Positions 12,149 through 16,151 of a stretch of 64,000 bases of DNA are shown here, piece by piece. Below the pieces are notes generated by a model that saw only the letters and a program-made list of their open reading frames with translations, made no database searches and was not told the origin of the DNA. The stretch covers positions 171,643-235,642 of the forward strand of contig NZ_JH932300.1 in assembly GCF_000301055.1 (NCBI RefSeq), given 5' to 3'. How positions within the stretch are numbered: position 1 is the first letter of the stretch; each line of letters opens with the position of its first letter. Origin of the DNA: Falseniella ignava CCUG 37419 (GTDB lineage Bacteria > Bacillota > Bacilli > Lactobacillales > Aerococcaceae). Made by a program: the position numbers and the translations under genes.

Positions 12149-12186
12149 TAAGCGCCTCGGTTTCTTGGGGCGCTTTATAAAAAAAG
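12149..12186 (+). terminator. tuf terminator
   Basis: AAGCGCCTC and GGGGCGCTTT form a GC-rich hairpin around TTTCTT. The tail is TATAAAAAAAG rather than a clean T run, so on the plus strand some readthrough into the PTS gene is possible. Confidence 0.6.
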
Positions 12187-12191
12187 TTATA

Positions 12192-12205
12192 TGTAAACGT
12201 TTTTA
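12192..12205 (+). promoter_or_regulatory. cre-like catabolite box ahead of the PTS gene
   Basis: TGTAAACGTTTTTA matches the CcpA consensus TGWAANCGNTNWCA at 13 of 14 positions. It lies between the tuf terminator and the PTS start codon, only 17 bases before the ATG. That position suits repression by blocking a promoter or elongating polymerase. TTATAT at 12187-12192 may be the -10 box, but no clear -35 is seen. Confidence 0.65.
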
Positions 12206-12221
12206 TAAAAGGAGAAAAAAT

Positions 12222-13676
12222 ATGAAAACATATATGCAGAAATTAGGTAAATCGTTGATGCTACCTGTCGCGACACTACCACTAGCTGCACTCTTGCTAG
12301 GGATTGGTTATGCGATTGACCCTGCTGGTTGGGGTGGCGATAGTGCGATTGCTGCTTTCTTAGTTGGAGCTGGGGGCTCAATCTTAGATAACATTGGGTT
12401 AGTTTTTGCAATCGGGGTAGCAGTTGGGATGGCTGAAGATAACGATGGTTCTGCAGCTCTAGCAGGATTGATCGCGATGCTTTCTGTGAATACGTTGCTA
12501 CAACCTGCATCCGTAGCAAACTTAACCCGAATTCCTTTGGAAGAGGTAAACGTTGCATTTAATGCGATTAACTTTAAAAACGTCTTTATGGGAATGCTCT
12601 CAGGGGCTGTAGCGGGTGAACTCTATAATCGATTCCATCGAATTCAAGTTCCAAAAGCTTTTGCTTTCTTTGGAGGGCGCCGCTTTGTTCCGATTATCAC
12701 TGGACTAGTTATGCTCTTAGTATCGCTATTATTAATCTTTATTTGGCCAGTCGTTTATGGAATTTTATTATCATTCGGTACGTGGATTGCTGGGATGGGT
12801 GCATTTGGAGCTGGTTTATACGGCTTCTTCAACCGCTTATTAATTCCAACAGGATTACACCACGCTTTAAACAACGTATTCTGGTTTGACTTAGTAAATA
12901 TTAACGATATCGGAAAATTCTGGGCGAATGAAGGAGTCAAAGGAATTACTGGAATGTATCAAGGTGGTTTCTTCCCGATCTTTATGTTTGGTTTGCCTGC
13001 AGCTTGTTTAGCAATGTATCAACAAGCAGATAGTAAAGCTAAGAAAGTCACTGCGTCGTTATTATTAGCGGGAGCTGTTACGGCATTTGTAACAGGGGTA
13101 ACTGAGCCAATTGAATTTACCTTTATGTTTGTGGCACCACAATTATACTTTGTCCATGCATTATTAACAGGCGTATCATTATTTATCGCTGCAACGATGC
13201 AATGGACTGCAGGGTTTGCATTCTCAGCTGGAGCCATTGACTTTATTCTTTCACTTGGAGTTCCGATGGCAAATCATCCATGGATGCTAATTGTCCAAGG
13301 GCTTGTCTTTGCTGTAATTTATTATGTGATCTTCACTTTGATGATCAAAAAATTAGATCTTAATACACCAGGTCGAAATGTTGAAGCTACCGAAATGAAT
13401 GAAACAGTTTTAAAAACAACAGATAGCTCAGCATATGATGAACGTGCCACTGCGATCTTTGAAGCATTAGGAGGAGCTGAAAATATTATTTCACTAACAA
13501 ATTGTGCAACACGTCTGCGCTTACGAGTGAATGATATGGATAAAGTGGATATGGATCGCATTAAAGCAACAGGTGTTCCGGGAACGCACGTGCTCGATGA
13601 TCAAAACTTACATGTTATTGTCGGTACGGATGTTGAGTTCGTGGCAGATAGAATGCGCGATTACTTAAAACACTAA
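12222..13676 (+). CDS. PTS sugar transporter EIICB, glucose/N-acetylglucosamine superfamily
   Basis: 484 residues: an EIIC membrane domain (about 1-385, roughly ten helices, opening YMQKLGKSLMLPVATLPLAA, with the substrate motif GVTEPIEFTFMF) and a C-terminal EIIB domain (about 405-484) with the phosphorylated Cys in LTNCATRLRLRV. There is no EIIA domain, so a separate EIIA must serve it. GGRRFVPI and the overall pattern remind me of NagE-type GlcNAc permeases, but glucose or another hexose is possible. I start at 12222 because GGAG is correctly spaced, and the open frame upstream of it runs into the tuf terminator. It has a cre-like box and its own terminator. Confidence 0.85.
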   Translation: MKTYMQKLGKSLMLPVATLPLAALLLGIGYAIDPAGWGGDSAIAAFLVGAGGSILDNIGLVFAIGVAVGMAEDNDGSAALAGLIAMLSVNTLLQPASVANLTRIPLEEVNVAFNAINFKNVFMGMLSGAVAGELYNRFHRIQVPKAFAFFGGRRFVPIITGLVMLLVSLLLIFIWPVVYGILLSFGTWIAGMGAFGAGLYGFFNRLLIPTGLHHALNNVFWFDLVNINDIGKFWANEGVKGITGMYQGGFFPIFMFGLPAACLAMYQQADSKAKKVTASLLLAGAVTAFVTGVTEPIEFTFMFVAPQLYFVHALLTGVSLFIAATMQWTAGFAFSAGAIDFILSLGVPMANHPWMLIVQGLVFAVIYYVIFTLMIKKLDLNTPGRNVEATEMNETVLKTTDSSAYDERATAIFEALGGAENIISLTNCATRLRLRVNDMDKVDMDRIKATGVPGTHVLDDQNLHVIVGTDVEFVADRMRDYLKH

Positions 13677-13717
13677 AATTATTTGATAATAATAAATACA
13701 AACTTCAGCGATGAACA

Positions 13718-13764
13718 TCATCCTCTGGCATTGATTTTCCTTTCAAAGCCGGGGGATTTTTTGT
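13718..13764 (+). terminator. Terminator of the PTS gene
   Basis: ATCCTCTGGC (13720-13729) pairs with GCCGGGGGAT (13748-13757) using three G-U pairs, followed by TTTTTTG. Strong and correctly placed. Confidence 0.75.
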
Positions 13765-13820
13765 TACTTCACAGATGTTTCTAAAAGTGATATTTCTGGT
13801 CATTTTTAAAAGGTATATAT

Positions 13821-13849
13821 ATTGCAAACGCTTCAGATACTGGTATAAT
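13821..13849 (+). promoter_or_regulatory. lrgA promoter with cre-like box
   Basis: TTGCAA (13822-13827), a 16-base spacer and TATAAT (13844-13849) preceded by TGG form the promoter. ATTGCAAACGCTTCAG overlaps the -35 box and has the AANCGNTT core of a CcpA cre site but a weak right half, so catabolite control is likely but not certain. Confidence 0.6.
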
Positions 13850-13879
13850 AAGCTTATGTATCGTGAAAGGAGGGAAAAG

Positions 13880-14254
13880 GTGAAAATTATCGAGCAATTA
13901 TTTTTCATTTTACTATTTTCGTTGATAGGTGAAGTTATAGCGGTTTTATTATCGCCGTACATCGCAGTGCCAGGTCCGGTAATGGGAATGTTGATTCTTT
14001 TTGCTGCGCTCCACTTTGGATGGATCAAAAAATCGAGCATAAAAATGGTCGGAACTTGGTTGACGGATAATATGGCGATATTTTTCGTGCCAGCTGGTGT
14101 AGGACTGATGACGCATTTTGATACACTGCAATCCATTTGGTGGCAACTATTATTGGTTGTTTTAATTACGGTCATCGTGCTATTAATTTGTATCGGTAAA
14201 TTCGTCCAAAAATTTATACGACAACATGATCAATTAGAGGAGGTGAACGAATGA
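13880..14254 (+). CDS. lrgA: CidA/LrgA family membrane protein
   Basis: A 124-residue small membrane protein with about four helices and the family motif VPGPVMGMLILF. LrgA partners with LrgB. The pair was described as a holin/antiholin-like system, and in relatives (YsbAB of Bacillus subtilis, LrgAB of Streptococcus mutans) as a pyruvate transporter. The chosen start is the GTG at 13880, with GGAGGGAAAAG just upstream. The longer reading from 13775 would swallow the promoter. The stop overlaps the lrgB ATG by four bases. Confidence 0.85.
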   Translation: MKIIEQLFFILLFSLIGEVIAVLLSPYIAVPGPVMGMLILFAALHFGWIKKSSIKMVGTWLTDNMAIFFVPAGVGLMTHFDTLQSIWWQLLLVVLITVIVLLICIGKFVQKFIRQHDQLEEVNE

Positions 14255-14970
14255 AAGAAGCCCTGTTATCTAATCCCTTTATTTGGTTAGTGTTAACCCT
14301 CGGCGTATTTCGTTTGCTGACAATGATTCAAGGGAAATTCAACCACGTTATTATAAAATCGTTATTTAATCCGTTATTATTGACGATTGCTGTAATTATT
14401 CTTATTTTGAAGTTGAATCAAATCCCTTATCAAGACTATGCTCAGGGAGGGCATTTTATATCGTTTATGATCGCGCCTGCTACGGTTTCTTTAGCCATAA
14501 AACTTGAAGAGAACTTTGAATATTTAAGACGTTACTTTAAAGTGATTGTGAGTTCGATTGTAATGGGAGTTATTATTCATACGACATTAATTGTGATACT
14601 CGCAATCTTATTCAAATTCGACTATGCGATGGTAGCGACGCTCTATCCTAAATCAATTACAACCGCGATTGCAATTGGAGTGAGTGAATCATTGGGAGGC
14701 ATTGTATCGTTAACGGTGGCTGTAGTCGTCTTTACAGGTGTCATTGGCGCAATGCTTAGCGAAACTGTTTTTGGAATTTTTAAAATAACCGATCCTGTGG
14801 CACAAGGCGTAGCATTAGGCACGTCAGCCCATGCGATGGGAACAGCGAAAGCAATCCAATTGGGGGATGTACAAGGAGCGATGTCGAGCATTTCGATTAT
14901 TATGACTGGGATTGTCGTTGTCTTACTTGCCCCGCTTGTTGAGCCGATTTTGCAATGGCTAATCAAATAA
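14251..14970 (+). CDS. lrgB: LrgB family membrane protein
   Basis: A 239-residue LrgB/CidB protein with about eight membrane helices. Family motifs include ALYPKSITTAIA-type YPKSITTAIAIGVSE and GTSAHAMGTAKAIQLGD. Translationally coupled to lrgA (ATGA overlap) with GGAGG before the start. It probably forms one complex with LrgA for pyruvate or a similar small acid. The lactate oxidase gene starts 24 bases after its stop, which supports a role in lactate/pyruvate metabolism rather than lysis. Confidence 0.88.
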   Translation: MKEALLSNPFIWLVLTLGVFRLLTMIQGKFNHVIIKSLFNPLLLTIAVIILILKLNQIPYQDYAQGGHFISFMIAPATVSLAIKLEENFEYLRRYFKVIVSSIVMGVIIHTTLIVILAILFKFDYAMVATLYPKSITTAIAIGVSESLGGIVSLTVAVVVFTGVIGAMLSETVFGIFKITDPVAQGVALGTSAHAMGTAKAIQLGDVQGAMSSISIIMTGIVVVLLAPLVEPILQWLIK

Positions 14971-14994
14971 ACAAAGAAAATGAAGGAGAAAAAA

Positions 14995-16101
14995 ATGACA
15001 GAATTAAATTATAACGCACCGAAAGAAGTAAAAGAATTACGGATTATTAATACTATTGAACTGGAAGACTTTGCTCAAGAAATCGTTCCGCATGGTGGCT
15101 TTAACTATATGGCTGGTGGTTCAGGAGATGAATTTACATTAAGACGTAACGTTGAATGCTTTAATTTTAAAGGGATCCTCCCTCGAATGGCAGCGGATGT
15201 TGAATTTCCGGACACAAGCACAAAAATTTTCGAGCATGAGTTGAAAGTGCCATTTATTATGGCGCCAATTGCTGCTCACGGGTTGGCACATGAAAGTAAA
15301 GAAGCAGGAACAGCTAGAGGAATTCGCGAGTTTGGTGGTTCCCTCATGTCAATTTCTGCTTACTCTGGAGCGTCATTTGAGGAAATCTCAGAAGGATTAG
15401 GCGATACACCACGCTGGTTCCAAATCTATATGTCAAAAGACGATGAGCTAAATAAAAACATTCTTGATGAAGCAAAAGCGGACGGAGCCTCAGCGATTAT
15501 TTTAACAGCGGATGCCACAGTATCGGGTAACCGACACCGCGACGATCGTAACGAGTTTGTCTATCCATTTGGAATGCCAATTGTATCTCGCTACTTAACG
15601 GGAACGGGCGCAAATATGTCACTTAACAATATTTACGGTCAATCAAAACAAAAAATTAATTTAGATGATATTCGTTTTATCAAGGAGCACTCAGAGTTAC
15701 CTGTTTTTATTAAAGGGGTGCAAACACCTGAGGATGCGTTAGCTGCTATGGGCGCTGGAGCAGATGGAATTTGGGTATCAAATCATGGTGGTCGCCAATT
15801 AGATGGTGCGCCAGGTTCATTTGAAGTGTTGGAAGAAATTGCTGTTGCGGTGGCAGGTCGGGTACCCATCGTATTTGACTCAGGTATTCGTCGTGGAGAA
15901 CATATCTTCAAGGCGCTCGCAAGTGGAGCAGATATCGTAGCAATTGGACGCCCGGTGCTATTCTCGCTTGCCTTAGGTGGATGGAAAGGCGTGAAGTCTG
16001 TTTTTGAATACTTTGAAACAGACCTTAAACGTGTAATGCAGCTAGCTGGAACCCAGACAATTGAAGATGTTAAAAATGCACGTCTAAAAGATTTAAAGTA
16101 A
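14995..16101 (+). CDS. lctO: FMN-dependent L-lactate oxidase
   Basis: 368 residues. Oxidises L-lactate with O2 to pyruvate and H2O2. It is very like Aerococcus viridans lactate oxidase: [30 protein letters not shown]-like segment, [36 protein letters not shown] and the catalytic histidine in [17 protein letters not shown] phosphate contacts are in [10 protein letters not shown] and [14 protein letters not shown]. The start at 14995 has AAGGAG seven bases upstream. The in-frame ATG at 14980 lies before that site and is rejected. Third gene of the lrgAB unit, ending in a strong terminator. Confidence 0.92.
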
Positions 16102-16116
16102 AATAAAACCAAAGAT

Positions 16117-16151
16117 TAGCAACTTGTTTTTCAGCAAGTTGCTTTTTTAAT
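16117..16151 (+). terminator. Terminator of the lrgAB-lctO unit
   Basis: AGCAACTTG (16118-16126) and CAAGTTGCT (16135-16143) pair perfectly around an 8-base loop, followed by TTTTTT. Confidence 0.9.

What the first reader, a model, noticed from the sequence alone, without database searches (positions are those of the whole stretch)
13821..16150. lrgA-lrgB-lactate oxidase operon couples a pyruvate-type transporter to H2O2-producing lactate use
The three genes share one promoter (with a cre-like box) and one terminator. Lactate oxidase yields pyruvate plus H2O2, and LrgAB relatives move pyruvate. Together they could turn external lactate into stored or exchanged pyruvate (also a peroxide scavenger). 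I do not recall this operon being described.
Basis: partly seen in the sequence, partly recalled or inferred. Interest (0 to 1): 0.55.

Follow-up and report, generated by a model that had tools for sequence, protein, structure and literature searches.

The report
Lactate uptake-and-oxidation operon with LrgAB
Three neighbouring bacterial genes, a two-part membrane transporter (LrgA and LrgB) and the enzyme lactate oxidase, form one unit that recurs in many lactic acid bacteria, and a swap with a known lactate carrier in sister species suggests that the transporter brings in the lactate that the enzyme burns.

Summary
LrgA (13880-14254), LrgB (14251-14970) and L-lactate oxidase LctO (14995-16101) lie between their own promoter and a strong terminator. 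The cre-like box is weak in this genome.

The linkage is not unique. In an even sample of 295 genomes of the order, 37 of 58 LrgBs of this type have lctO within 3 kb. All 26 lctO-linked LrgBs in the tree lie in one well-supported clade, apart from the LytSR-controlled type. In 31 of 37 fetched lrgAB+lctO loci a divergent LysR gene precedes the operon; the window lacks it.

Key evidence: in five fetched loci lctO is followed by a LctP-family lactate permease instead, four of them beside the same LysR; three of these lctO genes nest among lrgAB-linked ones. LrgAB thus holds the slot of a lactate permease.

I read the operon as lactate import plus oxidation to pyruvate and H2O2. "Pyruvate-type transporter" is partly right, since LrgAB and LctP relatives also carry pyruvate. 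Lactate/pyruvate exchange is possible but untested. I found no description of the operon in the open-access library. New variant of a known kind.

The parts
13720..13757 (+). hairpin plus U run; terminator of the upstream PTS gene, which separates it from the operon
   Evidence: fold of 13712-13766: -22.3 kcal/mol, z -4.51, 1 of 200 shuffles as good
13822..13849 (+). promoter of the operon, TTGCAA-16-TATAAT with extended -10 (TG)
   Evidence: 10 of 12 consensus positions, TG before the second hexamer; 16 promoter-like sites found in the region against 13.2 expected, so a consensus match only
13822..13836 (+). cre-like box (possible CcpA site) overlapping the -35 element; weak
   Evidence: 2 of 10 defined positions differ; 77 of 100 shuffles also reach a best site with 2 misses
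13880..14254 (+). lrgA, small membrane subunit (GTG start behind AAAGGAGGG)
   Evidence: PF03788, 3.8e-26
14251..14970 (+). lrgB, main membrane subunit; overlaps lrgA by 4 bp
   Evidence: PF04172, 1.6e-68; clade of lctO-linked LrgBs; K84/E86 signature; AlphaFold2 pLDDT 91.3
14995..16101 (+). lctO, L-lactate oxidase (FMN); a second in-frame ATG lies at 14980
   Evidence: PF01070, 4.4e-109; 243/361 identical to the LOX chain of PDB 7f22 and catalytic motifs kept
16118..16143 (+). intrinsic terminator of the operon
   Evidence: 11-bp stem, 4-nt loop, T run; z -5.54

Best explanation
The operon is a lactate import-and-oxidation unit. LctO, made from the same transcript, oxidises it with O2 to pyruvate and H2O2. 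This genome has pyruvate dehydrogenase but no SpxB-type pyruvate oxidase, so the pyruvate probably goes to acetyl-CoA and acetate, with any excess perhaps leaving through the same carrier. In most relatives a divergent LysR regulator, probably a lactate or pyruvate sensor, sits beside the operon; this genome lacks it. Shown by sequence: gene identities, operon anatomy, conservation, the separate LrgB clade, replacement by a LctP permease. Inferred: lactate as substrate, direction, regulation, fate of pyruvate.
For: (1) Linkage: 26 of 43 clade-type LrgBs in 149 genomes; 37 of 58 in 295 genomes drawn evenly from the order. Of 62 genomes with LctO of at least 62% identity, 44 have a clade-type LrgB, against 6 of the other 233 (odds ratio 92; related genomes are not independent). 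(2) Replacement: five fetched loci have lctO followed by a lactate permease (PF02652, TIGR00795 for the one tested), four beside the same LysR; 0 of 37 fetched lrgAB+lctO loci has one. In the LctO tree three permease-linked LctOs nest among lrgAB-linked ones (10-row clade, 100/97). Within genus g41, G133 has lrgAB-lctO and no PF02652 match, while G112, G126 and G140 have lctO-LctP and no LrgB match. (3) The own genome has no other LrgB and no PF02652 permease. (4) Clade-type LrgBs form a supported clade (38 rows, 100/97) apart from LytSR-linked LrgB, with residues of their own (K84, E86). (5) The LrgB model resembles CitS, a 2-hydroxycarboxylate transporter (Z 12.2, 226 residues aligned, rmsd 4.8; next other fold 6.7); CitP and MleP of that family exchange with lactate (PMC5451387 passages). 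(6) S. aureus LrgAB restores growth of a four-transporter mutant on lactate and on pyruvate (PMC12632267 passages); plant LrgB/PLGG1 carries glycolate and glycerate (PMC8805020 passages).
Against: S. aureus LctP and LldP carry pyruvate too, so the swap does not by itself tell lactate from pyruvate; cold lactate hardly competed with 14C-pyruvate there. An S. aureus lrgA mutant had no growth defect on lactate. B. subtilis PftAB is reported as specific for pyruvate. Many LctO genes have neither LrgAB nor LctP beside them (33 of 38 fetched lctO-only loci). Four of 26 linked genomes also carry a PF02652 permease elsewhere. The CitS match rests on fold only: Foldseek gave no match at E <= 0.001.
Confidence: 0.6

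Rival explanations
1. One reading: LrgAB is a pyruvate transporter that takes up or releases the product of LctO.
For: LrgAB/PftAB of B. subtilis, S. mutans and S. aureus carry pyruvate (abstracts and passages). The pftAB promoter also has a cre site over its -35 element, as the weak box here would.
Against: The B. subtilis and S. mutans/S. aureus systems are LytSR-controlled. This LrgB is in another clade than LytSR-linked LrgBs, beside LctO, and in relatives LysR, not LytSR; the genome has no LytS over the cut-off. The gene that replaces it is a LctP-family permease.
Confidence: 0.2
2. LrgAB works as a lactate(in)/pyruvate(out) exchanger, so the cell gains little carbon; pyruvate outside the cell quenches the H2O2 that the oxidase makes.
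For: LctO yields pyruvate and H2O2 one to one (established chemistry); CitS-like fold, a family with citrate/lactate and malate/lactate exchangers; no SpxB in this genome; PftAB both imports and exports pyruvate.
Against: No transport data; pyruvate dehydrogenase is present as a sink; 61 of 149 genomes have SpxB over the cut-off, so in many relatives pyruvate has another use.
Confidence: 0.15
3. LrgAB is a holin/antiholin-type lysis or membrane-stress module that happens to be co-expressed with the H2O2-producing enzyme.
For: The family was first described that way, and S. aureus CidA and LrgA act as holins in a lysis test (PMC8805020, abstract start).
Against: Replacement by a permease, conserved pairing with one metabolic enzyme, and a transporter-like LrgB model.
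Confidence: 0.05

Closest known systems
LytSR-lrgAB / pftAB (S. aureus, S. mutans, B. subtilis pyruvate uptake)
   Same: same two protein families, overlapping gene pair, monocarboxylate transport
   Different: other LrgB clade than LytSR-linked LrgBs, no LytSR, LysR in most relatives, coupled to lactate oxidase
cidR-cidABC (S. aureus; gene order recalled)
   Same: divergent LysR regulator (in relatives), two-part LrgAB/CidAB membrane pair, then an oxidising flavoenzyme of lactate/pyruvate metabolism
   Different: enzyme is an FMN lactate oxidase, not a pyruvate:menaquinone oxidoreductase; the regulator scores far below the CidR cut-off (97.5 against 415)
Fusobacterium nucleatum lct cluster (lrgAB, D-lactate dehydrogenase, EtfAB, Bcd; PMC12630350, passages)
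   Same: lrgAB in one cluster with a lactate-oxidising enzyme; its authors speculate pyruvate and/or lactate transport
   Different: D-lactate dehydrogenase with electron transfer flavoprotein to butyryl-CoA formation; regulated by a LytSR homologue
LctP/LldP lactate permease operons
   Same: permease next to a lactate-oxidising enzyme; here LctP sits in the same slot in 5 fetched loci
   Different: unrelated one-part permease family
Plant PLGG1 (LrgA-LrgB homologue) with glycolate oxidase
   Same: LrgB-family carrier of a 2-hydroxy acid (glycolate) that an FMN oxidase related to LctO then turns into H2O2 and a 2-oxo acid
   Different: organelle system; carrier and enzyme in different compartments

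Membership tests
LrgAB/CidAB membrane proteins | Pfam LrgA (PF03788) and LrgB (PF04172) over the curated cut-offs | tested here: met
   91.3 vs 28 and 230.7 vs 25 bits
LrgAB/CidAB membrane proteins | NCBIfam equivalog cut-offs for LrgA or LrgB/CidB | tested here: not met
   LrgA 67.6 vs 136; LrgB 177.9 vs 264; TIGR00659 182.3 vs 249.7: a divergent member, not an LrgAB ortholog by these models
LytSR-controlled LrgAB/PftAB | LytSR two-component system next to it or in the genome | tested here: not met
   none adjacent; PF07694 best hit in the genome 20.9 bits, below its 24.6 cut-off
LytSR-controlled LrgAB/PftAB | pyruvate transport | not testable with these tools
   needs uptake assays
L-lactate oxidase | FMN-dependent 2-hydroxyacid oxidase family | tested here: met
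   PF01070, 365.2 bits
L-lactate oxidase | active-site residues of Aerococcus LOX (Y40, A95, Y124, Y146, R181, K241, H265, R268; numbers recalled) | tested here: met
   all kept in the alignment with 7f22
L-lactate oxidase | TIGR02708 curated cut-off | tested here: not met
   571.5 vs 645.5 bits, still its best model by far
L-lactate oxidase | oxidation of L-lactate with release of H2O2 | not testable with these tools
   needs an enzyme assay
cidABC operon | divergent CidR regulator | tested here: not met
   no LysR at the window locus, only a weak partial match in the genome; the LysR of two relatives scores below the CidR cut-off
2-hydroxycarboxylate transporters (CitS/CitP) | sequence match to a family model | tested here: not met
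   Pfam scan of LrgB lists PF04172 only at E <= 0.001
2-hydroxycarboxylate transporters (CitS/CitP) | CitS-like fold | tested here: inconclusive
   VIA-align Z 12.2 over 226 of 239 residues, next other fold 6.7, but no Foldseek match at E <= 0.001

The most novel reading that the evidence does not exclude
A distinct LrgAB subfamily has become a dedicated 2-hydroxy acid carrier that exchanges external L-lactate for the pyruvate that its partner oxidase makes. The cell then releases H2O2 together with pyruvate, a peroxide quencher, from one operon, and K84/E86 of LrgB mark the change from pyruvate to lactate specificity.
Probability: 0.15. Interest if true: 0.75.

Novelty: new variant of a known kind. 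Interest (0 to 1): 0.55.

Why it matters
What LrgAB/CidAB proteins do, lysis or transport, and of what, has long been argued. Here a conserved operon and a swap with a lactate permease point to lactate as the physiological substrate of a whole subfamily, in organisms where deletion and H2O2 assays should be simple. It also offers a missing piece for H2O2-producing lactic acid bacteria: how external lactate reaches lactate oxidase. The clade-specific residues give a direct handle on substrate choice.

Tried and rejected
Uniqueness of the linkage: rejected. Spread beyond the order: in 398 genomes of the class, clade-type LrgB (over 170 bits) appears in 4, all of this order and all lctO-linked; the LrgB match list was cut, but it is sorted and the cut lies far below that score. 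Mutual exclusion of LrgAB and LctP at genome level: not clear-cut (4 of 26 linked genomes also have a PF02652 permease); only the locus-level swap is clean. The cre box as evidence for this genome: rejected as weak. Naming relatives by a scan of named genomes failed: it returned one distant hit, so genera are known by handle only. Neighbours of unlinked clade-type LrgAB (dihydrouridine synthase, TraX, redoxin, DsbD, HutD, Gfo/Idh and others) gave no common theme. Solved relatives of LrgB by sequence: none (best E 0.99). RNA families at the locus: none.

In one search the upstream stretch of the window locus was taken from a too early lrgA start; one search repeats it with the GTG at 13880. The trees keep only long rows (66 LrgB, 59 LctO, 28 LysR); one linked LctO (G017, broken frame) was dropped from the LctO tree. 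In one search, 2 of 54 aligned LrgBs were in no group and not counted. In one search only LctO hits of at least 62% identity were entered. In one search one unlinked lrgAB locus (G040) is present twice (L071, L181) among the 45 lrgAB-only loci. The loci fetched were chosen by me from the search hits; the 37 lrgAB+lctO loci are all 26 linked ones plus 11 of the further linked ones.

Full report
What is there. The window holds lrgA (13880-14254), lrgB (14251-14970) and lctO (14995-16101) on the + strand. Pfam puts all three well over the cut-offs; the stricter NCBIfam equivalog models are the best matches but stay under their cut-offs, so these are divergent members. LctO is 243/361 identical to the lactate oxidase of PDB 7f22 and keeps its catalytic motifs. 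lrgA and lrgB overlap by 4 bp and lctO starts 24 bp after lrgB. A promoter with an extended -10 lies at 13822-13849, a strong terminator at 16118-16143, and another hairpin with a U run at 13720-13757 closes the upstream N-acetylglucosamine-type PTS gene (PTS: TIGR01998 618.2 vs 553.2 bits). The three genes are therefore one transcription unit by anatomy. The unit, with the PTS gene, sits between tuf and the S10 ribosomal operon (these genes named by me from their translations, not by a search).

Is it more than chance. LrgB and LctO were sought in the same 149 genomes, own genome included. LrgB hits number 100; 43 score over 170 bits, and 26 of these have lctO within 3 kb on the same strand (24 with lctO downstream, 2 with the order lctO-lrgA-lrgB). 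Of the other 57 LrgBs none has. In 295 genomes drawn evenly from the order, 37 of 58 clade-type LrgBs (over 219 bits, with an LrgB of G096 as query) are linked, 36 on the same strand and one divergent; 44 of 62 genomes with LctO of at least 62% identity have such an LrgB, against 6 of the other 233. The two samples share genomes. In 398 genomes of the class the type appears only in 4, all of this order.

A separate LrgB clade. In a tree of 66 LrgBs all 26 linked ones fall in a 38-row clade (support 100/97) with 12 unlinked rows; the position of the window's own row inside it is weakly supported (81/29), its place in a 24-row subclade well (100/93). LrgBs outside are often preceded by a gene pair of the size of LytS and LytR; in the one locus where I checked that pair by Pfam they are LytS and LytR (L139). 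Several genomes (G089, G096, G103, G110) carry both kinds. All 23 linked rows compared have K84 and 91% have E86, where all 8 LytSR-type and 9 other rows have P and Y.

Regulator and permease swap. A divergent LysR gene precedes 31 of 37 fetched lrgAB+lctO loci, but not the window locus; the window's genome has only a weak partial match to it. In five fetched loci lctO is followed by a permease of the LctP family (PF02652; TIGR00795, 420.7 vs 341.15 bits for the one tested), four of them with the same LysR. The LctOs of three of these loci nest among the lrgAB-linked ones, and their LysRs fall in the same group as those of lrgAB-linked loci, so the parsimonious reading is that LctP took the place of LrgAB. 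In genus g41, G133 has LysR, lrgAB, a transposase-like gene (PF00665, 31.6 bits, just under its cut-off of 32.6) and lctO; G112, G126 and G140 have LysR, lctO, LctP and no LrgB match; G133 has no PF02652 match.

Mechanism. I take LrgAB here as a lactate importer for LctO. The swap, the pairing with a lactate-consuming enzyme, the absence of any other LrgB or PF02652 permease in the genome and published lactate import by S. aureus LrgAB (PMC12632267, passages) agree. The LrgB model (pLDDT 91.3) is closest to the 2-hydroxycarboxylate transporter CitS (Z 12.2 to 10.9 for four entries, next 6.7), though Foldseek itself found nothing at E <= 0.001. Against it: B. subtilis PftAB is described as pyruvate-specific, S. 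aureus LctP and LldP carry pyruvate and lactate hardly competed, and an S. aureus lrgA mutant grew normally on lactate. Pyruvate formed inside can go to acetyl-CoA by pyruvate dehydrogenase, whose E1 alpha is present; a SpxB-type oxidase is absent. Whether pyruvate leaves through LrgAB is open.

Regulation by CcpA. In the family, 21 of 26 linked loci have a cre-like site with at most one mismatch upstream, against 19 of 74 control regions from the same loci (Fisher p 1.2e-6, loci not independent). The window's own site has two mismatches and is not significant.

What is known. I found no paper that describes lrgAB-lctO as a unit in an open-access library; subscription papers are mostly missing there. 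The nearest published cluster is lct of Fusobacterium nucleatum (PMC12630350, passages). Papers were seen as passages found by terms: PMC12630350, PMC4521753, PMC9784791, PMC12632267, PMC8805020, PMC7409045, PMC5626966, PMC4867895, PMC5451387; all others only in search listings.

Verdict. Real, widely conserved in one order, and best read as a lactate uptake-and-oxidation operon. It is a new variant of known parts rather than a new kind of system.

Noticed in passing
window 12165-16101: A PTS IIBC gene (N-acetylglucosamine type) and the lrgAB-lctO operon lie between tuf and the S10 ribosomal protein operon, an unusual place for metabolic genes.
   Followed up: no
L106 (G017): LctO is split into two open frames by a stop in an otherwise intact lrgAB-lctO locus.
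   Followed up: no
L175 (G529): Two lrgAB pairs in tandem, then lctO, beside the divergent LysR.
   Followed up: partly
L083 (G055): lctO is preceded at 70 bp by a FAD-linked oxidase (PF02913/PF01565, D-lactate dehydrogenase-like), with no LrgAB: a possible unit for both lactate isomers.
   Followed up: partly
L122 (G133): A transposase-like gene sits between lrgB and lctO.
   Followed up: partly
L067 (G075): The LysR beside a lctO-less lrgAB is broken into two overlapping frames, as if the locus were decaying.
   Followed up: no
L063 vs L104/L105 (G032, G002, G022): Same flanking genes around lrgAB, but in G032 lctO is missing there and lies elsewhere, after the ribosomal L9 gene (L085).
   Followed up: partly
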